Below are positions 3,305 to 60,635 of a stretch of 64,000 bases of DNA, in pieces. A program made the translations under genes and the position numbers. This DNA comes from Corynebacterium mustelae (GTDB taxonomy: Bacteria; Actinomycetota; Actinomycetes; Mycobacteriales; Mycobacteriaceae): NCBI RefSeq assembly GCF_001020985.1, contig NZ_CP011542.1, forward strand, positions 3,038,001 through 3,102,000. Direction: 5' to 3'. The first letter of the stretch is position 1; each line of letters begins with the position of its first letter. The notes beneath the pieces are model-generated. The model was given only the letters and a program-made list of their open reading frames with translations. It did not search any database and was not told where the DNA came from.

Positions 3305-4270
3305 CTAGTTAGCACACTGTTGATGCAACCAGTCACGCGCGTCTACTTCCGGCTGCTCGGAAAGCACATCGGGATCGATGGGTTCCTCTGCAAATTCTTC
3401 TCCAGTTCGGGCTACATCTTTGGCGGTGGTGATCATTATTGCCGCACCATCGGGCATATCAAACACGACATTTGCACTAGCATAACCGGCCGACGGCTGA
3501 CCGAAAGTTCGCACATTGTCTAGACCACGGAAACTTAGCACCGTAGCCTCACCGGAGCTGCCCGTATGCTCGTCGAAAAGCACGGCGATGGGGCCATTAA
3601 ATTTGCTTTGCGACGCCACAGTGATCGGTGAACCACCACCCTCAACGGAACCGCCGGATATCGTAACATCGCTGCTATACCGCCCTTTGAAAGTAAGTAC
3701 CACCCCATCCGGCAATAGTGAACTCACCCCGGCCAGCATCGGCCCCATATCGCCACCAGTGTTCCCCCGCAGGTCGACGATCACCCCGCAGGCTCCCGCA
3801 ACATTGTCTTTTAGCCCCTGCGCCAAACTGTCAGCATATTGCTGCGCAACCGGCCCTCGCGCGACATGTGGAACCGTTGCAATCACAATATCGCCATCCC
3901 TAGACACATTCGGCAGGGTTGTATCCTGGACTGTTCCTGGCTTATTGCGTTCTGGCGGGATAACCCCCGAATGCTTACCACCAGCGGCTTTGAGGACCCG
4001 TTCGATAATCGGATGGGTTTGTGCGACCGAATCCACATCTTTTACTTCCTCCTTAGCCTGGGCGAGGACCTTGGCAAATTCCGGCGAATCCGCGTACAGT
4101 CCCTGCATTTGCGCCACATCAAAGGCGAAATTCGCGTATCGCTGCGGGGTCGCGACTACAAATATAGGGCGCCCGATCAGCCCCGCCCCCAAGACCGGAC
4201 CAAAGAACCACGTGACAATACCAGCTAGAACCAGTACCACCACGGCAATAATTCCCAGAATCTTTCTCAT
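3305..4270 (-). CDS. nsr: Nisin-resistance-protein-like S41 protease
   Basis: Membrane-anchored serine protease of the S41 tail-specific family, resembling the NSR proteins that cleave lantibiotics outside the cell. 321 residues. Seen: one N-terminal membrane anchor (about residues 4-25), the histidine in AAGGKHS (about 100), GVIVDLRGNTGGDMGPM (about 162-178), the serine motif HTGSSGEA (about 235-242) and SAGYASAN. These blocks match remembered streptococcal NSR. The ATG at 4268-4270 is used because AAGGAG lies 8 nt upstream, inside the end of the preceding gene. It is last in a three-gene operon. The lantibiotic substrate is inferred from family only. Confidence 0.75.
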   Translation of the reverse strand: MRKILGIIAVVVLVLAGIVTWFFGPVLGAGLIGRPIFVVATPQRYANFAFDVAQMQGLYADSPEFAKVLAQAKEEVKDVDSVAQTHPIIERVLKAAGGKHSGVIPPERNKPGTVQDTTLPNVSRDGDIVIATVPHVARGPVAQQYADSLAQGLKDNVAGACGVIVDLRGNTGGDMGPMLAGVSSLLPDGVVLTFKGRYSSDVTISGGSVEGGGSPITVASQSKFNGPIAVLFDEHTGSSGEATVLSFRGLDNVRTFGQPSAGYASANVVFDMPDGAAIMITTAKDVARTGEEFAEEPIDPDVLSEQPEVDARDWLHQQCAN

Positions 4271-4275
4271 ATTCA

Positions 4276-4482
4276 CTACTCCTTCACGCTGAATAGGTCA
4301 CCCGGCTGGCATTCGAGTGCCGCACACAACGCAGCCAGCGTTGTAAACCGCACAGCCTTTGCCCGGTTATTTTTCAGAACCGATAAGTTCACCACGGTGA
4401 CCCCCACTTCGTCCGCAAGGGCGGCGAGGGTCATATCCCGACTCTCAAGCAAGCTGTCAAGATGACATACCACTTCGGCCAT
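4276..4482 (-). CDS. Small Xre/Cro-type regulator (YozG-like)
   Basis: 68-residue DNA-binding protein consisting almost only of a helix-turn-helix (LAALADEVGVTVVNLSVLKNN). Such YozG-like regulators are commonly paired with DUF2975 membrane proteins, and here the ATG follows the DUF2975 stop codon directly. It probably controls its own operon, whose upstream region has two perfect palindromes. Its 3' end carries the ribosome site of the S41 protease, so the genes are translationally close. Confidence 0.75.
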   Translation of the reverse strand: MAEVVCHLDSLLESRDMTLAALADEVGVTVVNLSVLKNNRAKAVRFTTLAALCAALECQPGDLFSVKE

Positions 4483-5040: not shown

Positions 5041-5067
5041 GAGGATCACCTTTCAACAACTCAAAAC

Positions 5068-5154: not shown

Positions 5155-5375
5155 CAAGTCGGAGATTGCGCTTTTGGGCCGTCGAAAAGCGGGATCAAGA
5201 CATCCAAGATGCACCAATCCCCGACTTCACAACCCGCAAGCGGCCACCCATCCCCCACCCCACGAACCAAGCACCACACCCCACAGGCCCGCCCGATCCC
5301 CAAGGTCGGAGATTGCGACCACAGATCACAAAAAGCCCAGACCGCCCAAGCCGCAATACTTAAATCCCCGACTTG
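5155..5375. repeat. Two intergenic inverted-repeat elements (family A, copies 1-2)
   Basis: Copy 1 spans 5155-5228 and copy 2 spans 5302-5375, 74 bp each. Each begins with (A)AGTCGGAGATTGCG or AAGGTCGGAGATTGCG and ends with AATCCCCGACTT in inverted orientation. Interiors differ; copy 1 also carries GTCGAAAAGC at 5181. They fill most of the gap between the DUF2975 and Excalibur genes, which otherwise holds C/A-rich sequence without a gene. Confidence 0.8.
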
Positions 5376-7635: not shown

Positions 7636-7674
7636 GGTTAAATCTTAGCTTTTCGACGCCGCCTCCGGCCGCTA

Positions 7675-8868: not shown

Positions 8869-9288
8869 TTACGGTAGGTTTAAGTCGAAACGTAGGGCGT
8901 CGAAAAGCTCAAAAGCCGACTCGAAGCCAGCATCAATCCATTCCTGCAACTGTTCGTCGCTAGCACCATTGCGGATAGGGAATGCACAGTCGCGTCGCAC
9001 GAAAACTCCACTATCTGCATCACTACCAACGACCGTTTTACCAAACATACTCATGCGATTGCTAAAACCTGACCACGCTTCTAACTCGGGGAATCGCTCC
9101 GCTGCAATGGGCACGTTTTCCCGAATGACCGCCATGCGCATTACCTGCGGGGCCTGAATTTGCATGAGCAGAAATAAGCCGTCTAGTTCTGCGGCAAGAT
9201 AATCACCATCAATCTCCGGAACCACACCGTACCCTGCCAAGATATGGGTTAACCGCTCGGGTGTTACTAACGGAAACTCAGTGGACAT
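8869..9288 (-). CDS. YbjN-domain protein 1
   Basis: 139-residue soluble protein with a YbjN-like pattern (LTHILAGYGVVPEIDGDYLAAELDGLFLLMQI). YbjN folds resemble type III secretion chaperones; in actinobacteria such genes often occur in pairs of unknown role. Its start overlaps the stop of the upstream YbjN gene by one base, so the pair is translationally coupled. It diverges strongly from its partner. Confidence 0.6.
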   Translation of the reverse strand: MSTEFPLVTPERLTHILAGYGVVPEIDGDYLAAELDGLFLLMQIQAPQVMRMAVIRENVPIAAERFPELEAWSGFSNRMSMFGKTVVGSDADSGVFVRRDCAFPIRNGASDEQLQEWIDAGFESAFELFDALRFDLNLP

Positions 9289-11237: not shown

Positions 11238-13069
11238 TTCTTGTCTCCATCTTCTTCAACTACCTCAGCGTCAACAACATTGTCGTCAGCTGGGGTACCG
11301 GACTCCGCATCTGCCTGTGCCTTAGCCGCCTCCGCTTCGTAGATGGCCTTACCCATCTCCTGAGCCTCAGTGTTCAGCTTCTCGGCAGCAGCACGGATAG
11401 CCTCCAGGTCATCGCCCTTGAGAGCTTCGTCTACAGCGTCACAAGCCTCAGTTACCTTGGTCTTGATCTCCTCACTGACCTTGTCGGAGTTCTCATCCAA
11501 GAACTTCCGAGTCTGGTAGGCGGTGGACTCCGCAGCGTTACGGGTCTCCTGCTCCTCACGACGCTTCTTGTCTTCCTCAGCGTGAGCTTCGGCGTCCTTG
11601 ATCATGCGATCGATTTCTTCCTGGCTCAGGCCGGAACCATCCTGAATCTTGATGGTGTTTTCCTTGCCTGTTCCCTTATCCTTCGCGGTAACGTGCACGA
11701 TACCGTTAGCATCAATATCGAAGGTCACCTCGATCTGTGGAACACCACGTGGTGCAGGGGCAATGCCACCAAGTTCGAAGGAGCCGAGTAGCTTGTTGTG
11801 CTGCGCAATTTCCCGCTCGCCCTGGAACACCTGAATCTGAACCGAAGGCTGGTTATCCTCAGCGGTGGTAAAGGTCTCGGAACGCTTGGTTGGGATCGTG
11901 GTGTTACGTTCGATCAGCTTGGTCATCACGCCGCCCTTGGTTTCGATACCAAGCGACAGTGGGGTGACGTCGAGAAGCAAAACGTCCTTGACTTCGCCGC
12001 GCAAAACGCCAGCCTGCAACGCAGCGCCGACAGCAACAACCTCATCTGGGTTGACGCCCTTGTTAGGCTCGCGGCCACCGGTTAATTCTTTAACCAGATC
12101 GGAAACGGCAGGCATACGGGTGGAGCCACCAACCAAAACAACATGATCAATGCCGGAAACAGAGATACCAGCATCAGCAATCACCTGGTTAAACGGAGCC
12201 TTGGTGCGATCCAACAGATCCTGGGTGATGCGCTGGAATTCAGTGCGTGACAACGTCTCATCCAAGAACAGTGGGTTCTTGTCCGCATCAACGGTGATGT
12301 ATGGCAGGTTAATGTTTGCAGACTGGGAGGACGACAGCTCGATCTTTGCCTTCTCGGCAGCCTCACGCAGCCGCTGCATCGCCATCTTGTCCTTAGACAA
12401 ATCCACACCAGTGGAGGTCTTGAACTTTTCTACCAACCAGTCAACGATACGCTGATCCCAGTCATCACCACCGAGCTTGTTATCACCAGCGGTTGCGCGA
12501 ACCTCAACGACACCATCGCCAATCTCCAACAGGGAGACGTCGAAAGTACCACCACCGAGGTCGAACACAAGAATGGTCTGCTCCTTTTCACCCTTCTCTA
12601 GGCCGTATGCCAAAGCAGCAGCGGTTGGCTCGTTCACGATACGTAGAACGTTCAAACCTGCAATCTGACCAGCTTCCTTCGTTGCCTGACGCTGCGAGTC
12701 GGAGAAGTAAGCAGGAACGGTAATAACAGCATCAGTAACTTCGTCACCAAGGTATGCCTCAGCGTCGCGCTTGAGCTTCATCAAGGTACGAGCCGAAATT
12801 TCCTGTGGCGTGTACTTCTTGCCATCAATGTCGATGCTCCAGTCAGTACCGATGTGGCGCTTAACGGAGCGGATGGTGCGGTCAACGTTGGTAACAGCCT
12901 GGTTCTTAGCGGACTGACCAACAATCACCTCACCATTTTTTGTAAAAGCAACCACAGATGGCGTGGTGCGCGAACCCTCAGAGTTAGCGATAACCTGTGG
13001 CTCACCACCTTCCAAAACCGCTACGCATGAGTTTGTGGTACCTAAGTCAATACCAACAGCGCGTCCCAT
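11234..13069 (-). CDS. dnaK: DnaK chaperone (Hsp70)
   Basis: ATP-dependent chaperone, 611 residues. Seen: [45 protein letters not shown] and the linker [14 protein letters not shown] before the substrate-binding domain, with an acidic tail. ATG at 13067-13069 is preferred to an in-frame start 24 codons earlier because AAGGAGG lies 8 nt upstream and the protein aligns with all DnaK N-termini. A HAIR operator lies about 120 bp upstream. Confidence 0.97.
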
Positions 13070-13186
13070 ATCCAATTCCTCCTTGAAGTTTTTATGCTTA
13101 TGTACTGCGATTTTTAATGAAGTTGATCGGAAAACACTCAACTTCTTACAGATAACCTACCAGAGCCCGCGTCGAAAAGCTAGTAC

Positions 13187-13255: not shown

Positions 13256-14629
13256 ATGAATGAACACGATGATGACATTCAATCTGTATTAGACAACACC
13301 GATCTTGACCTCCATGTGGTGGAATCTGACACCGAACCCAACGTCGCCCACACCGACCGCGCCGTCATTTTAGGCAGGGACGGGCGCTGGGCCGCCGGTT
13401 GGGCGCTGCGCTTTATCATCATGGTTGTCGCAGGTTACCTCCTATGGCGCGGATTCGGCGCCATTTGGACCGCACTGCTTCCGGTGCTCCTCGCCCTGCT
13501 CGTTTCCACCGTCATGTGGCCGCCAGTGCGCTGGTTACGCAACCGCGGTGTGCCAGCCGCACTCGCGGTAATACTCGTTATCGTCGGGTTCTTCGCCATC
13601 CTCGCCGGAATCATTTCCGCCATGGCGCCACGCGTGGCCGGGCAATCCAAAGACCTGGTGCAAAAAGCAACGGAAGGTATTGAGAAACTCCAGGAATGGG
13701 TGCAAGGCCCGCCGCTTAACTTGGACCTGGATCAATTCGACAACGTCATCAAGGAAATCCAAGGTTTCGTACAGAACCGCTCCAGCGATATCGCATCGGG
13801 CGTCTTTACCGGACTTTCCACCGCAACATCAATAGTGGTGACTCTGGTCCTAATGCTGATCCTTACCTTCTTCTTCTTAAAAGACGGAACCCGCTTTCTC
13901 CCGATGATCCGCAAAGCAACCGGCCCCAACGTCGGCTGGCATCTTACGGAACTGCTCACCCGCGTGTGGAACACCCTTGCTGGATTCATCCGCGCCCAAG
14001 CCATCGTTTCGCTTGTCGACGCAATCTTCATCGGCATCGGCCTCATCATATTAAATGTCCCGCTGGCCCTCGTGCTGGCTGTCATCACCTTCTTCGCGGG
14101 ATTCATCCCCATCGTCGGTGCCTTCACCGCCGGTGCCCTGGCAGTGGTTATCGCCCTGGTTTCCAACGGACCCACCAACGCGTTACTGGTCGTCGGCCTC
14201 ATCATTCTCGTGCAACAGCTCGAAGGAAATGTCCTGCAGCCAATGCTGCAATCGCGCGCCATGAACCTCCACGCCGCAATCGTGCTGCTGTCCGTGACCT
14301 TAGGCTCCACTATTTTCGGTGTTGTTGGCGCCTTCCTGGCTGTTCCCGTCGCAGCAACACTGGCGGTACTCGTGCGCTACCATCAAGAACTCGTGGCGCT
14401 ACGCGCGGGCGAAATCACCATCGACGACATAGAGATGGCCACCACCTTGGAAAACACCACATCCGTTACCGCCAACGACGCGTTCAAAATTTTCACCGAC
14501 CGGTTGGCGAAACTCGGCTTTAAACAAGGCATCGGAAAAGTAACCAATAGCGGGAAGAAAACCACCTCCAAAACCAAAACAACAGAAGCAGCCACCGAGG
14601 ATGCTCAAGAGGAAACCAATACCAACTAA
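13256..14629 (+). CDS. AI-2E family permease-like membrane protein
   Basis: 457 residues. About 8 membrane helices in the AI-2E/PerM pattern: a hydrophobic pair (about 45-80), a periplasmic helical region (GQSKDLVQKATEGIEKLQEWVQG), then helices containing FFLKDG and the conserved GFIPIVGAF and LEGNVLQPMLQ. Acidic N-terminus and a Lys/Thr-rich C-terminal tail are cytoplasmic. Substrate unknown; the family name comes from one E. coli member. It is divergent from dnaK, as in C. glutamicum. Confidence 0.85.
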   Translation: MNEHDDDIQSVLDNTDLDLHVVESDTEPNVAHTDRAVILGRDGRWAAGWALRFIIMVVAGYLLWRGFGAIWTALLPVLLALLVSTVMWPPVRWLRNRGVPAALAVILVIVGFFAILAGIISAMAPRVAGQSKDLVQKATEGIEKLQEWVQGPPLNLDLDQFDNVIKEIQGFVQNRSSDIASGVFTGLSTATSIVVTLVLMLILTFFFLKDGTRFLPMIRKATGPNVGWHLTELLTRVWNTLAGFIRAQAIVSLVDAIFIGIGLIILNVPLALVLAVITFFAGFIPIVGAFTAGALAVVIALVSNGPTNALLVVGLIILVQQLEGNVLQPMLQSRAMNLHAAIVLLSVTLGSTIFGVVGAFLAVPVAATLAVLVRYHQELVALRAGEITIDDIEMATTLENTTSVTANDAFKIFTDRLAKLGFKQGIGKVTNSGKKTTSKTKTTEAATEDAQEETNTN

Positions 14630-34782: not shown

Positions 34783-35187
34783 ATGCCTAATCTATCAATC
34801 GGCGAATACGCCTTCCCCGGACCACTTCGCGATCAATTGGTTGCGGCGATAGTCGCGGGCGAAAAAACGTCGACAAGCAGTTTGGTGGCGGAATACGTAG
34901 ATTCACCACTCCCAAAGATCGGCGACAGAGAAATCGTCGTCGACTCAAACAACCAGCATGTTTGCATAACATGCGTCACCAACGTCTCCGTAGTCCAGTT
35001 TGCCAACGTGCCACTGTCGCACGCCCTAGCGGAAGGGGAAGGTTTTCGCACCGTTGCAGACTGGGCCGCCGAACATCGCGACTTCTGGCAATCACGTGAA
35101 TTTCAAGAATCCCTACCGCAGCCCATCAGTATCACTGATCACACAGAAGTGGTCTGCGTGAGCTTTGTCGTAAGCCATATTTTTTAG
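34783..35187 (+). CDS. ASCH-domain protein
   Basis: 134 residues with the ASCH pattern: KTSTSSL near the N-terminus (GEKTxTxSL), a central beta region (KIGDREIVVDSNNQHVCITCVTNVSVVQF) and HRDFW followed by the family C-terminal strand (EVVCVSFVVSHIF). ASCH proteins are PUA-like and thought to bind RNA; several hydrolyse N4-acetylcytidine. Start ATG 34783 lies just after the tRNA terminator. Confidence 0.75.
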   Translation: MPNLSIGEYAFPGPLRDQLVAAIVAGEKTSTSSLVAEYVDSPLPKIGDREIVVDSNNQHVCITCVTNVSVVQFANVPLSHALAEGEGFRTVADWAAEHRDFWQSREFQESLPQPISITDHTEVVCVSFVVSHIF

Positions 35188-47629: not shown

Positions 47630-48715
47630 TTATTTCAGTGAAGTGGGCAATTCGGCCGGTTTACCGCCCCACGCTTCAACCAAGGTTGTCACATTGTGAA
47701 CAATTGAGCCAATGTAGGTTTCGCCGGGGCTTCCAGCAGGGCCGAGTGAGTCACCGTAAAGCGCGTCCGCGTCGGTGATTGCGGTAACCCCTGCGGCACG
47801 AGCGATAGCGGAAATGGATTTATCATTATTGGAGTTTTCGGCGAATAGCACCGTGGCACCAGATTTCTTTACTTCGTCGGCCGCTGCTTGGATGTGCTCG
47901 GCGGTGGCATCTTGCTGGTGGTTGAAGTCGCTAAGTGCTGCACCAATAAAAGTGATGTCGTAGGCGGCTGCGAGGTAGCCGAACGCATCGTGGGAGGTAA
48001 ACAGGGTTCGCTTTTCGACGGGAACCGTATCCAGGCTTTTCTTCGCCCAGGCATCAAGGTCGGCTAGTTTTTGGGTGTAGGCGTCAACCGCTTTGGTGAA
48101 AGTGTCAGCTTTGTCTGGCGCTGCTTTGGCTAGGGCGTGGCCGATATTTTTCACCTGGATGGCAGCCAGTGGTGGTGCAGTCCAGACGTGTGGATCGTGG
48201 CTAAATTCTGCTTCCTCGCCTTCTTCAACAAAGGGCCAGGGTCGCACGTCGATGGCTTCAGTTCCCTTGTCGATGGTAAAGGCATCGCCCGGAATTTCAC
48301 CGACGCCAGAAGTCACGGATACTTCTCCGTCGAAGCCAGAGGTAGTTACTGCGGAATCGAGGAAGTGCTCTAAATCGACACCGTTGATGAACAGAATGTC
48401 GGCCGCCCCGAGTGCTTTCATTTGTTGCGGAGTCATTTCATGTTCGTGGGCTGAGGCATTGGGGGCTAGCAGGCAGGTGAGGTCCATTTCTACCGCACCG
48501 TCACCGATGGTGTTGTGTTTTCCTTGGGCATCGGTTTTGTCCACCGTGATACCGGCCTGGGCGATTTGGGTGAGGTAGTCGCAGATTTGGGTGGTGGAAG
48601 CCACCACTTTCAGGGTGTCGGAGGTGGTTTCGGTTGTTGGGGTGGTGGCACAACCGACCAATGCAAATGGAAGAGCGGCAGCACATACAGCTGCGAGTTT
48701 TTGGGTATAACGCAT
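47630..48715 (-). CDS. mntA: Manganese-binding lipoprotein MntA
   Basis: Cluster A-I (ZnuA/MntA-like) substrate-binding protein, 361 residues. Lipobox FALVGC near residue 20, then the metal-ligand motifs APNASAHEHEMTPQQ, SHDPHVWTAP, SHDAFGY, and DADALYGDSLG with acidic ligands. The His-rich loop is shorter than in zinc-specific ZnuA, which fits manganese. ATG at 48713-48715 starts the lipoprotein signal; a TTG three codons earlier is possible. In C. diphtheriae the order mntABCD-mntR is the same. Confidence 0.85.
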   Translation of the reverse strand: MRYTQKLAAVCAAALPFALVGCATTPTTETTSDTLKVVASTTQICDYLTQIAQAGITVDKTDAQGKHNTIGDGAVEMDLTCLLAPNASAHEHEMTPQQMKALGAADILFINGVDLEHFLDSAVTTSGFDGEVSVTSGVGEIPGDAFTIDKGTEAIDVRPWPFVEEGEEAEFSHDPHVWTAPPLAAIQVKNIGHALAKAAPDKADTFTKAVDAYTQKLADLDAWAKKSLDTVPVEKRTLFTSHDAFGYLAAAYDITFIGAALSDFNHQQDATAEHIQAAADEVKKSGATVLFAENSNNDKSISAIARAAGVTAITDADALYGDSLGPAGSPGETYIGSIVHNVTTLVEAWGGKPAELPTSLK

Positions 48716-48780: not shown

Positions 48781-49956
48781 TCAATTAGATGAACTCTTTA
48801 ACGTCTGAAGGAGCGCCATCGGTTTACGCAACGGCGCCTCAACAAAGACATAGGAACAAAAGCCAACCACAATCGACACCACCACGGTCAAGCCACACAC
48901 CAGAACAAAATTTCCCGTAAACGGGCGAACCCCTGCCAGCGGCAACACCACCGTTAAGACCGGCACATGCCACAAAAACACCGAATAACTAATCTTGCCC
49001 AAAAACTGCATCGGTGAAGATTCCAACACAAACGAAGCTGGGCCAAACACATACGGCGCAACTATGCACCACGCACACACCCCACCAGCTATAACCCGCA
49101 ACATAAATTCCACCGCAGACGGGTGTACCAACCCCACCGGACCAAACGACTGCTGCCCAGCCAGCCACATCGCCGCCAACGCAAGCGACCACCACATAAA
49201 ACGCCACCGGCACACAAGGCGCAAAATTCGCAGCCGCGTGGGGTCGTCGAAAAGCATGCCCTCTAATTCCGCGATCACAAGCCCCACCGCAAACCACAAG
49301 AAAAACCCCGGCAAAAATATCTGCATATTCGCGCGGGTATCGCTCGGAGAATCCTGCACCACCGGCAGATATGCCCAGCCCAAACTCACCAATGCCACAC
49401 CAAATATCACCATAAGGCGCACCCGGCGCGAAGCCTTCAGCAATACCAACCCCACTACTGGAAGCACCACATAAAACGCCACTTCCACACACAGTGACCA
49501 CAAGTGCGTCAACCCACCAAGAAAACTATGCGGAAAATACAATTGGGTAAAAGTGAAAGTCTGGATAACGGTAGCCGCACTTGCCCCAAAGGTTTCCGGC
49601 ACAAACGCCACACACACAGCAACGCACACAAAGTACGCCGGGTAAATCCGCCAAAACCGACGCCAGTAATACATCCGCACCATATCGGTTCTAAAATCCA
49701 TACCGCGCCACAACAGAAACGCTGACAGACTAAAAAACACCGCCACAAAAAAATCAAACCGTGACACTATCGCACCGATATGCGTTTTCGGATCCATTCC
49801 GGTCTGAAACCATACATGGGTCAGCAATACCCCCAACGCGGCTACGCCCCGCAACCCCTCCAGGCTTCGGTTAAATCGGCGTCGATTCGCTTTAACCGGC
49901 TGATCTAGATGGGCTACTGCTTCAGGTTTGGGTTTTGATGGGTACGATAGAGACAC
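48781..49956 (-). CDS. tmaT: Trehalose mycolate acetyltransferase TmaT (acyltransferase 3 family)
   Basis: 391 residues, about 10 membrane helices of the OafA/acyltransferase-3 family. Conserved SLEGLRGVAALGVLLTHVWF near residue 30 includes the catalytic His. In C. glutamicum TmaT acetylates trehalose monomycolate before MmpL export, and its mycobacterial counterpart Rv0228 lies next to the DUF3068 gene as here. Function is assigned by synteny with MtrP and the GT4 and DUF3068 genes. Confidence 0.75.
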   Translation of the reverse strand: MSLSYPSKPKPEAVAHLDQPVKANRRRFNRSLEGLRGVAALGVLLTHVWFQTGMDPKTHIGAIVSRFDFFVAVFFSLSAFLLWRGMDFRTDMVRMYYWRRFWRIYPAYFVCVAVCVAFVPETFGASAATVIQTFTFTQLYFPHSFLGGLTHLWSLCVEVAFYVVLPVVGLVLLKASRRVRLMVIFGVALVSLGWAYLPVVQDSPSDTRANMQIFLPGFFLWFAVGLVIAELEGMLFDDPTRLRILRLVCRWRFMWWSLALAAMWLAGQQSFGPVGLVHPSAVEFMLRVIAGGVCAWCIVAPYVFGPASFVLESSPMQFLGKISYSVFLWHVPVLTVVLPLAGVRPFTGNFVLVCGLTVVVSIVVGFCSYVFVEAPLRKPMALLQTLKSSSN

Positions 49957-51276: not shown

Positions 51277-52740
51277 ATGACCACGACCCACAGCAGGCAC
51301 CACTGGTATCTGTGCGGCTACACCTGCTTCCTCATCGTGGTCCTACTCGGTAATCTGCTGCAACCTGGAGTACTGCTTACCCGCGACATGGTGGTGCTCG
51401 ACCACCCGACGCTTAACCTATCCGCACTCGGTTTTGGTGACTTGCCTGCCCGAAACGCTCCCCAAGACGGATTTCTCGCGCTCGCAGGCCTGGTTCTACC
51501 CGCCTCATGGTTAGTACGAGGGCTCCTTTTTGCCACCGCAAGTATCGGAGCGTGGGCAGCCTACCAACTTGCTCAGCAACGTGGCCCAAGCAAAATTACC
51601 GCGACCGCGGCGATCACCATCACCCTATGGAACCCGTTTATCATTGAACGTCTGCTCCAAGGCCACTGGTCAGTAGCACTAGCTGCCTGGCTCATCCCCG
51701 CACTCCTATATTTCTGCGACCGGCCTAGATCCCAAACATTGGTGCTTTGGATCATAAGCCTCACCCCCACCGGCACTGTTCTAGGCACCATCATCGCTGT
51801 TATTTCCAACCGACAACATCGACTACGCATGGCACTAACCGGAGCATTGTTGTCACTACCGTGGCTTATCCCCAGCCTCATCAGTCCCCCGACAGCCAGC
51901 GCCCACAAGCTCTTCATAGGCCGCAGCGAAGCATTCCTCGATCCACTCACCACCTTTATCACCCTCGGCGGAATCTGGAATAACAATGCCGTCCCCGACT
52001 CCCGACACCACGGATGGGTACTCGCCGGACTTGCACTATTTGCCATCCTGATATGGCATATGCCCCGCAGGTGGGCGATCACCGGCGGGGTAGCCATCGC
52101 CCTGTATTGCGCACTGTGGCTCGGCCCCGCAGAATGGGTTTTCGCCCACCTACCCGGCGCGGCTTTATTTCGCGACTCCCACAAACTCGCCTTCCTATTA
52201 ATTCCCGGCTACATCACCGCCGCCACCCGGATAAGCAACCAGTGGTTAGCAGGACTAGCCACCGGATTAGCCCTACTACAAATCCCTGACGCCCCCATCG
52301 CCCTTAACACTCTTAGTCCCCTACCCGCTCAACACCAATGGCACACCCCAGACCGCACCCCAGGTGACCTCCTTAACCTCGATTCCCACGGACTGATTAC
52401 CTACCACGGTCGCGTACTGGTAGACCCGCTCAATAAAGCCGAATCCGTGGTGGAATCGGGACAATTGATCGTCGATACGCACATAGCCGACCCCGCATCC
52501 GCCCGGTACCAACTCGCCGTTGCCGCATGGCATAACCGTGACACCACTACACTAGCCCACCTGGGCATTTCCCAAGTGCTTGTCGACGGCTCCCGCATCA
52601 CCATCCCACACGCTGCATCGTCGCGCCAGGGATTTTACTTCTTAGGGTTATTCTTCTTATCTTTGTGGTGTGCGGTTCCCATTGCCACAGTATGGTTGAG
52701 CTTTTCTAAAAACCGCCGACCAGTTTCATCCCAGGAGTAG
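51277..52740 (+). CDS. Polytopic membrane protein (Rv0226c-like)
   Basis: 487 residues with about 10 membrane helices and a C-terminal outer domain. The pattern resembles GT-C-type proteins, without a clear catalytic DxD. It follows the DUF3068 gene by 5 bp, so likely cotranscribed. Its last 106 bp overlap the convergent glycosyltransferase gene. Same position as mycobacterial Rv0226c, role unknown but likely in mycolate or glycan transport. Confidence 0.7.
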   Translation: MTTTHSRHHWYLCGYTCFLIVVLLGNLLQPGVLLTRDMVVLDHPTLNLSALGFGDLPARNAPQDGFLALAGLVLPASWLVRGLLFATASIGAWAAYQLAQQRGPSKITATAAITITLWNPFIIERLLQGHWSVALAAWLIPALLYFCDRPRSQTLVLWIISLTPTGTVLGTIIAVISNRQHRLRMALTGALLSLPWLIPSLISPPTASAHKLFIGRSEAFLDPLTTFITLGGIWNNNAVPDSRHHGWVLAGLALFAILIWHMPRRWAITGGVAIALYCALWLGPAEWVFAHLPGAALFRDSHKLAFLLIPGYITAATRISNQWLAGLATGLALLQIPDAPIALNTLSPLPAQHQWHTPDRTPGDLLNLDSHGLITYHGRVLVDPLNKAESVVESGQLIVDTHIADPASARYQLAVAAWHNRDTTTLAHLGISQVLVDGSRITIPHAASSRQGFYFLGLFFLSLWCAVPIATVWLSFSKNRRPVSSQE

Positions 52741-53777
52741 CCCTGCGCCTTCATTGCCGCTGCTGCCCCCAACCGACGCCGCAGTTCGGCGTCGTCAAGC
52801 AAAAGCCGCAACTGACGCCGCAACTCGGCAGAATGTGACACCAACACCCCTGTGACACCATCCTCGATAGAATCCTGCAACCCGCCTGAACTGTGATATC
52901 CGATCGTCGGAACCTCATGTTGCGCAGCTTCCAAAACCGCAAGACCCCATCCTTCTTTACGCGAGGGCATCACATGAACCGCCGCACGCGAAAGTAGCGC
53001 GTGTTTATAATCCTCCGTCACCTGCCCGTGAAACACCACCTGGCGCGCCCCTTTTGCTTGCGCGTATTCTCGTAGCCGATCACCCCACCAGCCAGAACCG
53101 ATCACGTCTAACACCACATCTTCTAAGTCAGTCACCGCATCTATCGCATGTTCAATCTGCTTGTGCGGCACCAACCGTGACAGCGTAACCACATGTATTT
53201 TCCCATCAGCACCCAACTGCGGAATCACATCGGGAACCGGGTCTACCCCATTACGGATAATCTCAATGCCGCTCGCCGGAAACCCCAACCCCACCAGTTC
53301 CTGCGCACTCGGTGCCGAAACAGTCACCACCGGTGTGTTCTGATGTACAAGCGGCGAAATCTTTGACTCGATAAACCACCCGACCCGCGCCAACACCTTG
53401 CCCGCGACTGGCCACTGCTCCCGGTGGCAATGATGGGTTAATAGCACCGTTGGACGTCCCGAAAACAGTCGTGCAAAAAATGGGATTCCATTCTGGGTAT
53501 CCACCACCACATCAATCCCCCGCAGTGGCCCAAGCCCCATTCGACCGAGCATCATCAATATCGCTGCCTGCGGATACACCCCCAGTTTTCCGCCGCCTCG
53601 GGAAAACTTCACCCCATCACGGATAGTCCACCGCGGGCTATCGGTCGGCTTCGACGTGCGAAACACCACCTCATGGCCTTGCTCAACCAGATACCTGGCT
53701 ACGTGCTCTAAGTAGCGTTCACTCCCGCCCCCCTGCGGATGATCGGTGTCTCGCCAGCACAGTAATAAAACTTTCAT
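52635..53777 (-). CDS. GT4-family glycosyltransferase (Rv0225-like)
   Basis: 380 residues, GT-B fold. Seen: PQGGGSERYLEHVARYL near the N-terminus, the EX7E-type region SRKEGWGLAVLEAAQHEVPTIGY (about 265-287) and GVTGVLVS. Likely uses a nucleotide-sugar on a cytoplasmic lipid acceptor. ATG at 53775-53777. Its 3' end overlaps the convergent gene by 106 bp. Confidence 0.8.
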   Translation of the reverse strand: MKVLLLCWRDTDHPQGGGSERYLEHVARYLVEQGHEVVFRTSKPTDSPRWTIRDGVKFSRGGGKLGVYPQAAILMMLGRMGLGPLRGIDVVVDTQNGIPFFARLFSGRPTVLLTHHCHREQWPVAGKVLARVGWFIESKISPLVHQNTPVVTVSAPSAQELVGLGFPASGIEIIRNGVDPVPDVIPQLGADGKIHVVTLSRLVPHKQIEHAIDAVTDLEDVVLDVIGSGWWGDRLREYAQAKGARQVVFHGQVTEDYKHALLSRAAVHVMPSRKEGWGLAVLEAAQHEVPTIGYHSSGGLQDSIEDGVTGVLVSHSAELRRQLRLLLDDAELRRRLGAAAAMKAQGYSWDETGRRFLEKLNHTVAMGTAHHKDKKNNPKK

Positions 53778-55117: not shown

Positions 55118-58100
55118 CTAGAACAGCAGTGGTGCCGGGTAGTGGGCAAGTTGGATTAAGGTTTTTTGCCCATTGCGTCCCACCCACTGAGCGCGGCCTG
55201 GCGGCAGGTTCTGAAGGTAGACGTTAGGCCAGATTTGTCCTTCATTATGGTCGCCGGAAAGCAGGATCCCGGTTGCGCCAGCATCTTTAAGCCCTTGGAT
55301 GACGGCTTCATAATTAGCGCGTCCCATTCCAGAGGAGTTACGGGCAATAATGACGTGTAGTCCAATCCGATTAGCGTGGGCAAAATACGGGATGAGTGGC
55401 CGCAGCGGGTTGTCGGAGCCTTCGATGAGTTCGTAGTCATCCACCACGATGTAGATGTCTGCACCTTCCCAATTCTCACCGGTTGATGCCACCCGCAGTC
55501 GGTGATCCAGTTCTTTTTGCAAGAATTCCACCGCGATGTTGGCGGTCTTGATAGTGCCAACGTATTTGGAAATGTAATCCTTTGGTACAAAGCCAAGGAG
55601 GGTGCGGCGGATATCGAAGATAGCGAAAGTTGCTTGCTCCGGGAAGTGTTGGGCGAGCAGTTCACTGATGATAGTGCGCAGGGTGGAGGTGCGACCAGTT
55701 TTGGTATCCCCAATGATCATCAATAGCTGTTGCTCACCGTCGAGATCCAAAACCGCCGGGCTGAGGTTGTTCTCGGTTACGCCGACCAGCGCTTCGGGCG
55801 CGCCTGGGTGTTCGGCGCGTAACTCCTCGTAAAGGATGTTAGTTGGAAGCATTTTGCCCACCGGGGCGGTCTCGGTGGTGGTACCGTTCCACCCGCCCGC
55901 AATCGCTGCGACGAGCTCCGCTGCGGTTTGGGCGTGAACGACTCCTGGCTGGTTGAAGGTTGGCAGCGCGATCTGGCAGTAGTTCTTATCCATGCTGATT
56001 GCGCGGCCAAGTGGCGCATTTTCCATTTCCATCATGAGTCCACGCCCGTTAACAGAGGCAAGTGGGTTATCCATGCGCAATTCGATGCGGGAGCCGATGG
56101 CCTCCTGTACGTCCCTGCGGAAGTCGGACCATTGTCTGGTAGTGAAAATCACGTGAATGCCGTATTGCAGTCCGCGTTGTGCGAGGTTCTGCACGATTTC
56201 TGCCAGTACGTCGAAGCGTTGTTTGAATTCTTCCCAGCCGTCGATGACGAGGAAAAGATCTGAGGCGGCTATTTCCGGTAGCGCGCCACGTAATTGCATG
56301 TTTCGCATGTCGGTGGCATCGGTAAGGCCATGTTTGGTGAAGAGTTTTTCTCGCCGCGACATCGCGATTTGCAGTTGCGCAATCATCCGATTGAGGCGTT
56401 CTTCGTCGCTGCCGGTGGCCACTGCTGTGACATGCGGCAAATCGGCAAGGTGGCCGAGTAAACCGTCGGACATGTCGACGATCGTGAAGTTCACCTCGGT
56501 CGGGGTGTGAGACAAAGCAGCAGATAGCACGAGAGTGCTGATGGCGGTAGTTTTGCCGGAGTGTTCGCTGCCAATGATGGCCAGGTTGCCGTGTTCGCCA
56601 GTGAGGTTGACCGTAAGCGGGCCGCGCCATTGTTCCCTGGGGTTATCTTTGACGCCAAGGGTGAAGTCAAGATATTTTTCCTGCGGCACGGCAAGCCCCC
56701 GGTTGGAGGTGAGTTGCGCTTCATCGAGCACCTCTTCAAGTCCAATTTCTTCAGCAAGCGGTGGCAACCAAATTTGGTTGGTACGCAGTTCCGATGGCCT
56801 AAGCCGGTCGAGCACAACCTGGATGGTAGAACGATCGTCGGTGCCGGGGGTGGTTGCGGCAGCATCGGTTGCTTTTCGACGCTCCAACCACGCACTTGTC
56901 GTGTTCCGCAGTTCCAACGGCATGCCAATGGCAGGCATGCTACCTGGGTGGTGCTTCTCACTTGGCAGATATGGATCGGAAACTATCGCTGCCCGGAACC
57001 TGCTGTAAGTACCGCTGTCGGTCTTAAGATAACCGAAGCCTGGGTGCTCTGGTAGCTCCAACGCATCGGTGGTTCCCAATGTGAAACCAGAATCGCTAGC
57101 CGAGTCGGTGCGTAGCGTCAAGTGGTAATTCAGATATGGCGCTAACCCATTGATGGTTTCATCTTCTAGGTGTTCGGTTGCCAAAATCAGGTGTAATCCA
57201 ACTTTATGGCCGATCCGGCCGATCTGAACAAGCAGATCGATAAAGTCTGGCTTAGCCGCGAGCAGCTCCTGGTATTCGTCGATGACGATAAACAGGTGCG
57301 GCATGGGTTCTTGGATTTGGCCTCGCTCACGCAGCCGGTTGTAGTCATGGATGGTGGCAACGTTTCCAGCGCTTTGCATCATCCGCTGCCGCCGCTGGAT
57401 TTCACCAAGAATTGCGTCGTGCAGTCGGGTGATGAGGCCAGCGGAATCTTTCAAGTTCTGCACGATTGCGGCAGTGTGCGGCAAACCACAGAAGCCGGTG
57501 AAGGTACCGCCCGCTTTAGCGTCGACAAGCACGATGGCAAAGTTCTCGGGCGAATGGCGCACCACATTGCCTAAGACGATGGTCTGCAGAAGTTCCGATT
57601 TTCCGGAACCAGGGCCGCCAACGCAGATGCCGTGTGGCCCCATGCCTTCAAAGTCAGATTCTTTAATATCAAGACCCACTGGCTCGCCGTGAGTGTCGAT
57701 ACCAAATGGGGCGGTGAGGAAATCGTCCAGGTGACGTGGGGCCCAGAGCTCTTCAATGTTGTAATCGTTGAAATTCCCAACCCCCAGCAAAGTATCCAAG
57801 GTGATTGGGTGTTGTAGTGGATCGTCGTCTTCTGGCGCGTCGTCAGCTCGCAGAGGCGCTAGTTCACGCGCTATAGCATCTGCCAACTGCGGCGACAGGC
57901 TGTCAAGGGTGCCTGCGGTACCACCGTATAACAACCGCGCATCATATCCTGCTGCACCGGCTTGTGGCGAAAACCGACCAAGGTCGACCGTAAAATGCGG
58001 AGTGGGTGAACCGAAAAGGGAAATTCGAATATCTGCCGCAACGGAAGCATTGTTGCGGGATGTCACGATCACGCTTATACCGGCGACGGAGACATCTGGG

Positions 58101-59080
58101 ATCGTTGCAATATGGGAAAGCACGGACATTCCATGCTCCGAATCCGCATCGACAACGATGAGCAGGTGTGGGGTATGTGACCCAGGTTCGTCTCGACGCC
58201 GTTCAATCTCTGCGATGAGGTTAGCTGCGGACTCTGCATCATCGCTGACATTTCGGGTACCCACCGGACCGTCCAGGGTGTGATCGTCGCTAAGATGCGG
58301 CAGCCAGAGCGCCCACGAACCGGTATCAGCAGCCCCCGATAACGGCAAAGCAAAATGAATTTTTAGATCAGTTGGGGAATGCATGACAGCGGCTTGCAAC
58401 ACAAGCGCACGAACTGCGTTTGCGGTGGCGTTCGGCGCGCCGGTAATCATCACCACGCCGCGCAGCGGAACAGCGATGGGCAAATCATTAATCCGCTCAA
58501 CCCGGCGTAACATGCGTGCAACATGGGCGTAAGCGGTACGATCAGGTGCCACATCAATGGCGGGGACTTCGATTCCGCAAGCCAGATCGCCAGGGCCTTG
58601 CCCGAGCCGAACCACAAGGAAATCTGAGTCATCAGGCCGACGCTCCCACAGCCGTTCCGGCTGGCGAATTACGTTACGCAGCGCACTTGGGGCTGGGTTA
58701 TGCCGTAGCGAGTAGTCGCGTTGGGTTTCGGCTTGATTCCGAAGTGCAGCTTCACAGTTTTCCAATTCTGCAATGTATAAGGCCCGTTGCGTCTTCGCTT
58801 TTCGACGCGCACCAGTGTTGCCGACCACCCACATCAATGCCCCCAGCACGATGGCCACCAGGAGCATTCCGCCACCAACGGCCAACCATACGGGGTCTTG
58901 TAAGAACCAGATGACCAGTCCCATACCAACAGCACCGATCAACAGCAACAACACCTTAAGCAGGCCTGAAGCCTTGCTTAAGACACCTGCGGTGGGCGGC
59001 AAGGCACCGAGCCGCACTGGACTCTCAGGCTTAATATCGTGCTGCACACGGTCAGGACGATGAACTAAACGAGTACTCAT
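55118..59080 (-). CDS. eccC: Type VII secretion ATPase EccC (single chain)
   Basis: FtsK/SpoIIIE-type motor of an ESX system, 1320 residues, unsplit. Two N-terminal membrane helices (about 35-90), a DUF-like domain, then three nucleotide-binding domains. Domain 1 has GGPGSGKSELLQ and FIVIDEYQELL (complete); domain 2 has GSEHSGKTTAIST and LFLVIDGWEEF (D without the following catalytic E in the usual place); domain 3 has IGDTKTGRTSTLRT and IYIVVDDYELI. In ESX systems domains 2 and 3 are often degenerate and substrate-linked. Acts at the inner membrane. Confidence 0.93.
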   Translation of the reverse strand: MSTRLVHRPDRVQHDIKPESPVRLGALPPTAGVLSKASGLLKVLLLLIGAVGMGLVIWFLQDPVWLAVGGGMLLVAIVLGALMWVVGNTGARRKAKTQRALYIAELENCEAALRNQAETQRDYSLRHNPAPSALRNVIRQPERLWERRPDDSDFLVVRLGQGPGDLACGIEVPAIDVAPDRTAYAHVARMLRRVERINDLPIAVPLRGVVMITGAPNATANAVRALVLQAAVMHSPTDLKIHFALPLSGAADTGSWALWLPHLSDDHTLDGPVGTRNVSDDAESAANLIAEIERRRDEPGSHTPHLLIVVDADSEHGMSVLSHIATIPDVSVAGISVIVTSRNNASVAADIRISLFGSPTPHFTVDLGRFSPQAGAAGYDARLLYGGTAGTLDSLSPQLADAIARELAPLRADDAPEDDDPLQHPITLDTLLGVGNFNDYNIEELWAPRHLDDFLTAPFGIDTHGEPVGLDIKESDFEGMGPHGICVGGPGSGKSELLQTIVLGNVVRHSPENFAIVLVDAKAGGTFTGFCGLPHTAAIVQNLKDSAGLITRLHDAILGEIQRRQRMMQSAGNVATIHDYNRLRERGQIQEPMPHLFIVIDEYQELLAAKPDFIDLLVQIGRIGHKVGLHLILATEHLEDETINGLAPYLNYHLTLRTDSASDSGFTLGTTDALELPEHPGFGYLKTDSGTYSRFRAAIVSDPYLPSEKHHPGSMPAIGMPLELRNTTSAWLERRKATDAAATTPGTDDRSTIQVVLDRLRPSELRTNQIWLPPLAEEIGLEEVLDEAQLTSNRGLAVPQEKYLDFTLGVKDNPREQWRGPLTVNLTGEHGNLAIIGSEHSGKTTAISTLVLSAALSHTPTEVNFTIVDMSDGLLGHLADLPHVTAVATGSDEERLNRMIAQLQIAMSRREKLFTKHGLTDATDMRNMQLRGALPEIAASDLFLVIDGWEEFKQRFDVLAEIVQNLAQRGLQYGIHVIFTTRQWSDFRRDVQEAIGSRIELRMDNPLASVNGRGLMMEMENAPLGRAISMDKNYCQIALPTFNQPGVVHAQTAAELVAAIAGGWNGTTTETAPVGKMLPTNILYEELRAEHPGAPEALVGVTENNLSPAVLDLDGEQQLLMIIGDTKTGRTSTLRTIISELLAQHFPEQATFAIFDIRRTLLGFVPKDYISKYVGTIKTANIAVEFLQKELDHRLRVASTGENWEGADIYIVVDDYELIEGSDNPLRPLIPYFAHANRIGLHVIIARNSSGMGRANYEAVIQGLKDAGATGILLSGDHNEGQIWPNVYLQNLPPGRAQWVGRNGQKTLIQLAHYPAPLLF

Positions 59081-59186
59081 GAATTCCCTTCGGAAAACGA
59101 TTATCCGACGCGTTTAATTATCCACGTTTTCGGCGTTTCAGTCTAAAGCTTTCTTTTAAGCATTAAACCGTGAAATCATCATTATT

Positions 59187-60635
59187 ATGGCAACTGTGTT
59201 TATTCGCCTTAGCGTTTTTTACAATGATCGACAATTAGACGTGAGCGTGCCTGCTCACCGGCCAATCGTCGACGTCATCGATGACATCACCAACCTGCTT
59301 GGTGTCCCCTCCGTCGCTCCTGGAAGCGACGATGACCCTAAAGCAGACACTCAGCCGTGGGCATTGTCCTCCCCCACAAAGGGGTTACTGGATTCGGAAT
59401 TAACCCTCGACGATTACTCCATCGTCGACGGCCAACGTCTCTACCTAACCCCACAACTTGCTGCTGCTCACTCCCCCTTTGTCGATCACGCAGTTCCTGA
59501 ACTTCGCAGCGCTGTGGCGGCAACCACCTGGCGTTGGGCGGATTCCACTCGCGCTACCGGTTACTTCATTGTCGCCACGGTTCTTGCGCTGCTGGTGTAT
59601 TTCCCAACGCTTGGTGCAGTGTATTCCGCCCCAAACGACTTCTCCGCCTGGTCCCTTCCCACGATCGTCCCGGCAGCCATATGTCTAGCAATCACCCTCA
59701 TATTCCTGATAGCAGCATTCCTCCAACCAGTTAAACCTATGCGCTGGTTAGGCCTAATTACGCCACTCACTGCGATAGCTGCCACCAGTCCTTTCCTCAC
59801 TCCACTTCCCGCTGGTCGCGAATGGTCGGGGTTGGTATCAGTCGCCTGCATAGCTGCAATTCCCGCAGCGCTGGCGGCTGGCCGCAAAACCGAACGTACC
59901 GGGCGAGGCGGCGCACTAGCGCTCTTGCTGGTCGCGCTCGCAGGTGTTGCGTTATACACCGCCAATTACTTTGGCATCAGTGCGTTGGCGTTTAGCGCCT
60001 GGGGCGCCTGGGTTCCGATCGTTGCGCTTATCATCGCACCGAGTTTCGCCGTGAAGTCGGCAGGGCTGACCGCACTGCTTCGGGAAAATGACAATGGCGC
60101 TGCGGTATCGCGCACGGATATTCGTCGAAAAGCAATTAAAGCCGCAACCATATGTGACGGCCTGGTGTGGTTCGCCACGGCTACTGCATTCTTTATCATT
60201 GTCACCTTGGCATCTAGCCCGTACTGGCAGCAGGGAATCCTGGCGGCAGTCTTGTCTATCATCATGCTGCTGCGTACCGCTAGCTTCAGCGATGCTCGAC
60301 GCATCACCCCACTAATCCTTAGCGGAACCGTTGGATTAGCACTCTGCGCTGCTGCCTGTGTCCCTTGGGCAAAGACTTTCAACGATAGTGAAAAACCACA
60401 CAACCCGTGGTGGCTTTCAGCCGCATCCGACCAATGGTTGACTGGCGCAGTTTTCGCTGGCACTTGTTTGTTACTCGTTCTGGCGATCATCCTCATCGCA
60501 AAACGCAAACCGGCTACAACGCCTACCAATTCCTCCAGTACGATCGGCACACTCGATACCATTTTCACGGTTGCTGCAATTCCAGTGATCCTGGTGGCAC
60601 AAGGTGTCTTTAGCTACTTCTGGGCTCTGTCCTAG
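59187..60635 (+). CDS. eccD: Type VII secretion membrane protein EccD
   Basis: 482 residues: N-terminal ubiquitin-like (YukD) domain (about 1-90, with FIRLSVFYNDRQLDVSVP), then about 11 membrane helices. EccD forms the bulk of the ESX membrane channel with EccC. It diverges from eccC with a 106-bp promoter gap, the arrangement of mycobacterial ESX-4. EccB, MycP and WXG100 substrates were not seen in the window; they may lie beyond 64000. Confidence 0.9.
   Translation: MATVFIRLSVFYNDRQLDVSVPAHRPIVDVIDDITNLLGVPSVAPGSDDDPKADTQPWALSSPTKGLLDSELTLDDYSIVDGQRLYLTPQLAAAHSPFVDHAVPELRSAVAATTWRWADSTRATGYFIVATVLALLVYFPTLGAVYSAPNDFSAWSLPTIVPAAICLAITLIFLIAAFLQPVKPMRWLGLITPLTAIAATSPFLTPLPAGREWSGLVSVACIAAIPAALAAGRKTERTGRGGALALLLVALAGVALYTANYFGISALAFSAWGAWVPIVALIIAPSFAVKSAGLTALLRENDNGAAVSRTDIRRKAIKAATICDGLVWFATATAFFIIVTLASSPYWQQGILAAVLSIIMLLRTASFSDARRITPLILSGTVGLALCAAACVPWAKTFNDSEKPHNPWWLSAASDQWLTGAVFAGTCLLLVLAIILIAKRKPATTPTNSSSTIGTLDTIFTVAAIPVILVAQGVFSYFWALS

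What the first reader, a model, noticed from the sequence alone, without database searches (positions are those of the whole stretch)
3572..60133. A non-palindromic 10-mer, GTCGA(A/C)AAGC, is iterated 26 times across the window
I counted 17 exact GTCGAAAAGC and 9 exact GTCGACAAGC on both strands. A given 10-mer is expected about 0.12 times in 64 kb (both strands, equal base use), so the pair should occur about 0.24 times. Copies lie in genes of both strands, in different frames and therefore coding VEK, RKA, LFD, STS or SKS, and between genes at 5181, 7648, 13171 and 32547. Codon use cannot explain this, and no mobile sequence surrounds the copies. Strand bias is small for the A form (9 to 8) and larger for the C form (7 to 2). 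A functional genome-wide signal (DNA uptake, repair or recombination hotspot, methylation target, chromosome architecture or segregation) would fit. Near matches (GTCGTCAAGC, GTCAACAAGC, ACTTTTCGAC) are also present and suggest decay and renewal.
Basis: partly seen in the sequence, partly recalled or inferred. Interest (0 to 1): 0.95.

Follow-up and report, generated by a model that had tools for sequence, protein, structure and literature searches.

The report
DNA-uptake password of Corynebacterium
A DNA word with nine fixed letters, CGTCGnnAAGC, occurs 1,682 times in this Corynebacterium genome, is kept unchanged at most sites in a relative, is missing from the plasmid and phage contigs of the same assembly, and is likely a password by which the cell would recognise and import DNA of its own kind.

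Summary
Codon use does not explain it: 115 coding copies of CGTCGAMAAGC in a 464 kb sample against 2.6 after synonymous shuffling. The sites show no replication-strand bias (116 leading, 126 lagging). CGTCGnnAAGC occurs 0 times in the genome's plasmid and phage contigs, where 43 would be expected. In a relative at 84% nucleotide identity, 100 of 110 alignable sites keep all nine bases; random windows 26%. Third codon positions are 97.5% identical inside sites, 65.4% outside. Of 242 Corynebacterium genomes, 164 carry CGTCGnnAAGC strongly and 6 weakly; 14 carry CATCGnnAAGC instead, 4 weakly; 54 neither. Sites were rewritten in place: 8 of 9 alignable CATCG sites in one 20 kb stretch are CGTCG in a sister. 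In 185 genomes of 30 related genera no comparable enrichment was seen. This is the signature of a DNA uptake sequence with dialects, as in Neisseriaceae, but in an actinobacterium with Tad pilus and ComEA/ComEC genes. Uptake itself and the receptor are untested. I found no report in the papers searched.

The parts
3571..3581 (+). site CGTCGAAAAGC
3605..3615 (-). site CGTCGCAAAGC (inverted pair with 3571)
5180..5190 (+). site CGTCGAAAAGC
7648..7658 (-). site CGTCGAAAAGC, between ORFs
8898..8908 (+). site CGTCGAAAAGC
11968..11978 (+). site CGTCGAGAAGC
13170..13180 (+). site CGTCGAAAAGC, between ORFs
14011..14021 (-). site CGTCGACAAGC
17758..17768 (+). site CGTCGACAAGC
18390..18400 (-). site CGTCGAAAAGC
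19607..19617 (+). site CGTCGACAAGC
21174..21184 (-). site CGTCGTTAAGC
21506..21516 (+). site CGTCGAAAAGC; identical in relative L001
22575..22585 (+). site CGTCGACAAGC; identical in L001
23510..23520 (-). site CGTCGAAAAGC; identical in L001
23865..23875 (+). site CGTCGACAAGC; not intact in L001
26394..26404 (-). site CGTCGAAAAGC; identical in L001
26986..26996 (+). site CGTCGAAAAGC; identical in L001
27526..27536 (-). site CGTCGTTAAGC
30269..30279 (-). site CGTCGTTAAGC
31200..31210 (+). site CGTCGAAAAGC; identical in L001
32547..32557 (-). site CGTCGAAAAGC, between ORFs; not intact in L001
33793..33803 (-). site CGTCGTCAAGC
34868..34878 (+). site CGTCGACAAGC; identical in L001
39634..39644 (+). 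site CGTCGATAAGC
39904..39914 (+). site CGTCGGCAAGC
41176..41186 (-). site CGTCGACAAGC; not intact in L001
42191..42201 (-). site CGTCGATAAGC
45620..45630 (+). site CGTCGACAAGC
48010..48020 (-). site CGTCGAAAAGC
49245..49255 (+). site CGTCGAAAAGC
52578..52588 (-). site CGTCGACAAGC
52790..52800 (+). site CGTCGTCAAGC
56871..56881 (-). site CGTCGAAAAGC
57520..57530 (+). site CGTCGACAAGC
58797..58807 (-). site CGTCGAAAAGC
60123..60133 (+). site CGTCGAAAAGC
63777..63787 (+). site CGTCGTCAAGC

Best explanation
The motif is a slice of CGTCGnnAAGC, present 1,682 times in this Corynebacterium genome, and it likely works as a DNA uptake sequence: a mark that a predicted surface receptor of the Tad-pilus/ComEA-ComEC machinery would bind so that the cell preferentially imports DNA of its own kind. 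SHOWN: the word; its two dialects (CGTCG or CATCG), one dominant per word-bearing genome; the lack of strand polarity; its absence from the plasmid and phage contigs; its conservation; in-place dialect conversion in one pair of 20 kb loci; and the presence of tad, comEA and comEC genes. INFERRED: a receptor binds the word on incoming double-stranded DNA; biased uptake and recombination then spread and repair the sites, which would explain why they are conserved at third codon positions. When the receptor's taste changes at one base, recombination would rewrite existing sites in place, giving a dialect and a barrier to exchange between species. CANDIDATE RECEPTOR (lead only): the small Tad pilin called TadE2 here, the second TadE-like gene, which in 34 of 34 loci examined ends in a Cys-x16-Cys segment of fixed length and variable sequence. 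The predicted mature major pilin Flp is an unlikely determinant, because it is identical in nine of the ten genomes compared across one dialect switch, with one substitution in the tenth.
For: Count and symmetry: 1,682 copies (822+/860-) against 87 reversed control; 116 leading, 126 lagging, p=0.56. Not codon use: 115 against 2.6 expected. Gapped-word screen that was not told the motif: CGTCGnnAAGC is the first (5) or second (G060) word in the 6 sampled CGTCG genomes and CATCGnnAAGC the first in the 4 sampled strong CATCG genomes. Dialects: of 242 genomes, 164 CGTCG, 6 weak, 14 CATCG, 4 weak, 54 neither. Conservation: 100 of 110 alignable sites intact in G197 at 84.4% nucleotide identity; random windows 26.3% of 57,232; near-motif controls 4 of 28; flanks 0.841. 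Third codon positions 0.975 of 324 inside, 0.654 of 49,629 outside; 84 of 92 coding and 16 of 18 other sites intact. In-place switch: 8 of 9 alignable CATCG sites of L101 are CGTCG in L202. Absence from mobile DNA: CGTCGnnAAGC 0 in the 82,672 bp of contigs C2 and C3, 43 expected (3 CATCG in C3); C2 has ParA and MobF matches, C3 has phage terminase, portal and tape-measure genes; with five named plasmids and one phage, 8 of either form in 244,851 bp. Machinery in this genome: tadZABC-flp-tadE-tadE2, comEA-comEC-holA. Micrococcus luteus, also an actinobacterium, needs tad genes for transformation (PMC4322843, abstract and passages).
Against: No uptake, binding or transformation experiment exists here, and I saw no paper showing natural transformation in Corynebacterium in the listings. 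Presence of the machinery does not separate genomes with and without the word: ComEC is found in 241 of 242 genomes, the one miss being a weak CATCG genome, and TadA in 59 of 60 tested, including 52 of the 53 word-less genomes among them. The receptor is not identified: no tad or com protein stands out across the dialect switch. The two spacer bases nn are also conserved (0.936), more than a free spacer predicts, perhaps through linkage or codon constraint. The in-place conversion rests mainly on 9 alignable sites in one 20 kb pair; in the short com region, of 2 CATCG sites of G143 one is CGTCG and one is broken in G219. The weak CATCG class is poorly separated: G028 (159 copies) gave nothing in the gapped screen of 80 kb, and some CGTCG genomes have up to 165 CATCG. 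The C-x16-C segment also occurs in the 4 word-less genomes examined.
Confidence: 0.8

Rival explanations
1. A Chi-like recombination hotspot: a recombination nuclease-helicase (AddAB, AdnAB or RecBCD type) recognises the word in single-stranded form and switches from degrading to repairing DNA.
For: A short, non-palindromic, abundant word, scarce on the plasmid and phage contigs; a recognition change could in principle also make dialects. The nuclease genes were not searched for.
Against: Chi words of well-studied bacteria are biased to the leading strand (recalled); here 116 leading, 126 lagging, p=0.56, and over 164 genomes the strand totals are 91,141 to 91,049 (a whole-genome total alone would not show polarity). 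54 genomes carry neither form.
Confidence: 0.08
2. A chromosome-architecture or segregation site: a nucleoid or condensin-loading protein binds the word all over the chromosome.
For: Chromosome-wide and scarce on the plasmid and phage contigs, slightly more even than random (CV of spacing 0.80, 221 gaps), strongly conserved.
Against: No orientation pattern between replichores. Two dialects with conversion in place would need hundreds of compensating changes; 54 genomes do without.
Confidence: 0.07
3. A methylation or restriction mark by which a defence system tells self from foreign DNA.
For: Scarce on the plasmid and phage contigs; split of presence between species.
Against: Self-marking does not require over-representation of the site, and restriction usually depletes it (general knowledge). 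Third-position conservation over about a hundred sites is not predicted.
Confidence: 0.03
4. By-product of codon-pair bias or of a dispersed mobile repeat.
For: 115 of 150 CGTCGAMAAGC sites in the sample lie in ORFs, 44 of them in one orientation and frame.
Against: Synonymous shuffling within genes leaves 2.6 of 115; density is twice as high outside ORFs (602 against 283 per Mb); flanks are unrelated; identity of the flanks is at background.
Confidence: 0.01

Closest known systems
DNA uptake sequences (DUS) and their dialects in Neisseriaceae (Frye 2013, PMC3630211, abstract and section 'DUS dialects' read; ComP receptor, Berry 2013, PMC3868556, abstract read)
   Same: A 10-12 bp non-palindromic word in about 900-6,000 copies per genome, one dominant dialect per genome with an exception, dialects differing by one or a few bases, some genomes of the family without an obvious one.
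   Different: Different word, different phylum; gapped core (CRTCGnnAAGC); the pilus genes seen here are Tad/Flp type; 54 genomes inside one genus have no word although com and (in those tested) tad genes are present. Function untested.
Uptake signal sequences (USS) of Pasteurellaceae, predicted receptor the minor pilin ComN/PpdA (PMC12616744, abstract and one passage read)
   Same: High copy number (recalled), dialects, a pilin proposed as receptor.
   Different: Different word and phylum; the receptor here would be a Tad pilin or ComEA.
Tad/Flp-dependent natural transformation of Micrococcus luteus (PMC4322843, abstract and passages read)
   Same: Actinobacterium with tad genes plus comEA/comEC.
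   Different: The term 'uptake sequence' does not occur in that paper's main text; transformation is experimentally shown there, not here.
Chi and KOPS words (recalled)
   Same: Short, non-palindromic, genome-wide over-representation.
   Different: Those are polar with respect to replication; this word is not.

Membership tests
DNA uptake sequence (DUS/USS) | Strongly over-represented word, hundreds to thousands of copies | tested here: met
   1,682 copies against 87 control; first word in the gapped screen of G000
DNA uptake sequence (DUS/USS) | Both strands equally, no replichore bias | tested here: met
   (464 kb sample); whole-genome strand counts
DNA uptake sequence (DUS/USS) | Scarce in plasmids and phages | tested here: met
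   0 CGTCGnnAAGC in 82,672 bp of C2 and C3; 8 of either form in 244,851 bp of mobile DNA, of which 2 are CGTCG; host dialect of the six other elements not checked
DNA uptake sequence (DUS/USS) | Dialects specific to species groups | tested here: met
DNA uptake sequence (DUS/USS) | Competence machinery (ComEC, DNA-uptake pilus) encoded | tested here: met
   DprA not searched
DNA uptake sequence (DUS/USS) | Word enhances DNA binding, uptake or transformation | not testable with these tools
   needs an experiment
DNA uptake sequence (DUS/USS) | Sequence-specific receptor | tested here: inconclusive
   no tad or com protein tracks the dialect clearly
Neisserial ComP-DUS system | DUS with CTG core, read by the minor type IV pilin ComP | tested here: not met
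   core is CRTCGnnAAGC, without CTG; the pilus genes found are Tad type. ComP itself was not searched for
Chi recombination hotspot | Leading-strand orientation bias | tested here: not met
   116 to 126

The most novel reading that the evidence does not exclude
To my knowledge it would be the first uptake-sequence system in an actinobacterium, and the first read by a Tad pilus.
Probability: 0.35. Interest if true: 0.95.

Novelty: new variant of a known kind. Interest (0 to 1): 0.87.

Why it matters
If right, the genus Corynebacterium (commensals, industrial amino-acid producers and some pathogens) has species-selective sex by DNA uptake that I have not found described. It would give a dialect map to test how an uptake receptor and its genome-wide sites co-evolve, with closely related genomes on either side of a switch (G001 and G219 groups). 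It would also give a practical tag that might make non-pathogenic laboratory strains transformable with plain DNA.

Tried and rejected
Codon bias rejected. Mobile repeat rejected. Replication polarity not found. Presence or absence of ComEC or TadA as the reason for absence of the word rejected: both genes are nearly universal. Many word-less genomes have a more divergent TadA (44-52% identity to that of G000), which I read as phylogeny and did not test. Predicted mature Flp as dialect determinant judged unlikely: identical in 9 of 10 genomes, one substitution in G102. Column contrasts in Flp, TadA, TadB, TadC, TadE, TadE2, ComEA and ComEC gave no clean determinant (output partly cut, so part of the TadE, TadE2 and ComEA result was not seen). 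Two columns did not overlap (one in ComEC with V in 9 of 9 CATCG rows, one in TadA), but the CATCG genomes are phylogenetically clustered. A Leu at position 10 of the TadE2 segment in 11 of 17 CGTCG and 0 of 13 CATCG rows (counted by eye; Fisher p=0.0003, without phylogenetic correction) is a lead only. No third dialect was seen in 7 word-less genomes sampled, several of them with little DNA. G000 as C. mustelae is a recollection from genome size only, not tested.

Family breadth: 185 genomes of 30 other genera show at most a 2.7-fold excess of CRTCGnnAAGC over the reversed control (G346, 449 to 168), and about two-fold in several genomes of genera g5 and g23; the reversed control does not match codon use, so a weak signal there is not excluded.
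Full report
WHAT IS THERE. The window is Corynebacterium: a protein of the window is 98% identical to one of a Corynebacterium MAG and the other seven relatives found are also from Corynebacterium. It is C1:3038001-3102000 of an assembly of 3,474,226 bp, with a 3,391,554 bp contig (the chromosome) and two contigs of 39,867 and 42,805 bp. I counted 17 GTCGAAAAGC and 10 GTCGACAAGC in the window, all 27 preceded by C. In a 464 kb sample (the window plus 20 stretches of 20 kb), a gapped-word screen that was not told the motif ranks CGTCGnnAAGC first: 242 found, 7.6 expected. Weak preferences for G at -5 and -2 give a longer consensus GnnGnCRTCGnnAAGC (47-80% and 44-85% over six genomes).

NOT A BY-PRODUCT. 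Of 150 CGTCGAMAAGC sites in the sample, 115 lie in ORFs of at least 100 aa (picked greedily by length, no gene caller) and 35 outside (283 and 602 per Mb). Shuffling synonymous codons within genes leaves a mean of 2.6 (maximum 5 in 30 shuffles) of the 115. In ORFs they lie in all three phases of both orientations, 52 same and 63 opposite, unevenly: 44 in one phase of the opposite orientation.

NO POLARITY. With the origin taken at the start of C1 and the terminus near the GC-skew switch at about 1.7 Mb (inferred), 116 CGTCGnnAAGC of the sample are on the leading and 126 on the lagging strand (p=0.56). Summed over the 164 CGTCG genomes the strands hold 91,141 and 91,049.

SCARCE ON MOBILE DNA. 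C2 (ParA and MobF matches in its first 8 kb) has none of either form; C3 (phage terminase, portal, tape measure and endolysin) has 3 CATCG and no CGTCG. At the chromosome rate, 43 CGTCGnnAAGC are expected in the two (Poisson p=2e-19). Five named Corynebacterium plasmids and phage BFK20 bring the total to 8 in 244,851 bp, 6 CATCG and 2 CGTCG. The dialect of the hosts of those six was not checked.

KEPT UNCHANGED. Against the relative G197 (84.4% identity over 171,996 aligned of 204,000 bases), 100 of 110 alignable sites keep all nine core bases; of 57,232 random windows 26.3% do; eleven near-motif control patterns together 4 of 28. Per-position identity is 0.984 in the core, 0.936 in the two n positions and 0.841 in the flanks. 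Third codon positions are 0.975 identical inside cores (324) and 0.654 outside (49,629); 84 of 92 coding and 16 of 18 other sites are intact. A first look at 20.7 kb of the window had 7 of 10 identical (narrower form). The raised identity of nn is not explained by my model.

DIALECTS. Scans of 242 Corynebacterium genomes (own included) for CGTCGnnAAGC and CATCGnnAAGC were classified from hand-copied counts: CGTCG at 325 or more copies, weak from 180; CATCG at 400 or more, weak from 150 with fewer than 100 CGTCG. Result: 164 CGTCG, 6 weak CGTCG, 14 CATCG, 4 weak CATCG, 54 neither. The CGTCG counts are bimodal: the richest of the 54 has 134, the poorest weak CGTCG genome 195. The weak CATCG class is not well separated (159-223, while some CGTCG genomes have up to 165 CATCG), and the screen found nothing in one of them, G028. 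G024 has 352 CGTCG beside 1,337 CATCG, and CGTCG relatives of the G001 group have raised CATCG counts (for example G106, 134 against 875 CGTCG). On a TadA tree of 34 rows the CATCG label needs at least 3 changes, also when only well-supported branches are counted; TadA stands in for a species tree. In the tad region, G001 (CATCG) and G219 (CGTCG) are about 80% identical. Of 11 sites of either form in 20 kb of G001, 9 align, all CATCG; 8 of them are CGTCG in G219 and 1 is CATCG in both; of the two unaligned, one is CGTCG (listing). Conversely, of 15 sites in G219, 13 align: 8 are CATCG in G001, 1 is CATCG in both, 4 are broken. Shorter tad pairs, which overlap this region, agree: 2 of 2 CATCG sites of G143 are CGTCG in G219, 1 of 1 of G102 is CGTCG in G106. 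In the com region 1 of 2 CATCG sites of G143 is CGTCG in G219 and 1 is broken; of 3 CGTCG sites of G219 there, 1 is CATCG in G143; of 3 in G106, none is intact in G102. So sites shared by the sisters mostly changed the one core base in place, and other sites were gained or lost. In 185 genomes of 30 other genera of the family nothing comparable was seen. Of the named genomes searched with the narrower CGTCGAMAAGC, C. silvaticum had 278, C. minutissimum 244 and C. spheniscorum 3.

MACHINERY. The genome has tadZ, tadA, tadB, tadC, flp, tadE and a second TadE/G-like gene (tadE2) in a row near a helicase-like gene and topA (gene names by recollection; Pfam supports tadA, tadB, tadC, flp (DUF4244) and tadE2, and gives nothing for tadZ and tadE), and comEA-comEC-holA. 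ComEC is in 241 of 242 genomes, a T2SSE-family ATPase in 239 of 242, 235 over the cut-off, TadA in 59 of 60 tested (53 of the 54 word-less genomes were among the 60, and 52 of those have it). So presence of the machinery does not predict the word. Across the G001/G106 switch the predicted mature Flp pilin is identical in nine of ten genomes (one substitution in G102), and no other tad or com protein stands out. TadE2 has exactly two cysteines after its helix, 18 residues apart inclusive, in 34 of 34 loci; ComP of Neisseria has a disulfide-bounded DNA-binding region by recollection, so this is a lead.

MECHANISM. The combination of high copy number without polarity, scarcity on plasmid and phage DNA, conservation at silent positions, and one-base dialects resembles the uptake sequences of Neisseriaceae (PMC3630211, abstract and one section; PMC3868556, abstract) and Pasteurellaceae (PMC12616744, abstract and one passage). 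The inferred cycle is: a receptor binds the word on free DNA; DNA with the word is imported through the Tad pilus and ComEA/ComEC, as tad genes are needed for transformation in M. luteus (PMC4322843, abstract and passages); recombination then restores or spreads the word. Sites broken by mutation are replaced by intact ones from relatives, which gives the silent-site conservation. A changed receptor converts sites in place. None of these steps was tested here. Neisserial mobile elements have been recognised by atypical DUS distribution (PMC7371117, abstract), which matches the scarcity seen here.

LITERATURE. Ten searches of an open-access library showed no report of such a word in Corynebacterium in their listings. 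Search 12, for the 10-mers as text, matched 312 papers, of which 30 were listed; none of those 30 titles concerns Corynebacterium or DNA uptake, and the other 282 were not seen. A spaced-motif survey that included three Corynebacterium genomes reports CRISPR pairs for them in the passages I read (PMC5217627), not this word. Subscription papers and preprints were not searched, so prior description is not excluded.

Noticed in passing
window 5156-5374, 6171-6252, 14753-15075, 23921-24109, 32483-32696, 36127-36199, 54663-54987, 60768-60924: A second dispersed repeat, TATGAAGTCGGRGATT (23 copies of AAGTCGGRGATT), often as inverted pairs (arms 47-59 nt apart in the three close pairs measured). It is concentrated in this window: only 3 further copies in 400 kb sampled elsewhere on the chromosome. 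It looks like a miniature mobile or REP-like element; position relative to genes not tested; not identified.
   Followed up: partly
G000 contig C3 (L076-L078), 42,805 bp: A separate contig with phage terminase, portal, tape-measure, endolysin and replication genes: a phage or phage-plasmid of this strain.
   Followed up: partly
tad loci of 34 genomes (e.g. L100:7718-8041): The small TadE2 pilin has an invariant-length Cys-x16-Cys segment with variable sequence in 34 of 34.
   Followed up: partly
G346 and other genomes of genera g5 and g23: About two-fold excess of CRTCGnnAAGC over the reversed control in several genomes of two other genera of the family.
   Followed up: no
window 59187-60635: A protein resembling the type VII secretion membrane protein EccD, below the NCBIfam cut-off (82.1 against 94.95 bits).
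   Followed up: no
G127 (L049-L052): Repeated GTCCAAAAAGT and GACTCCGTGTCC words in a genome without the uptake-like word, perhaps an insertion-sequence end.
   Followed up: no
chromosome sample, close site pairs: 11 of 12 site pairs closer than 120 bp are in opposite orientation, as for uptake words that double as terminators in other bacteria; not tested for terminator function.
   Followed up: no
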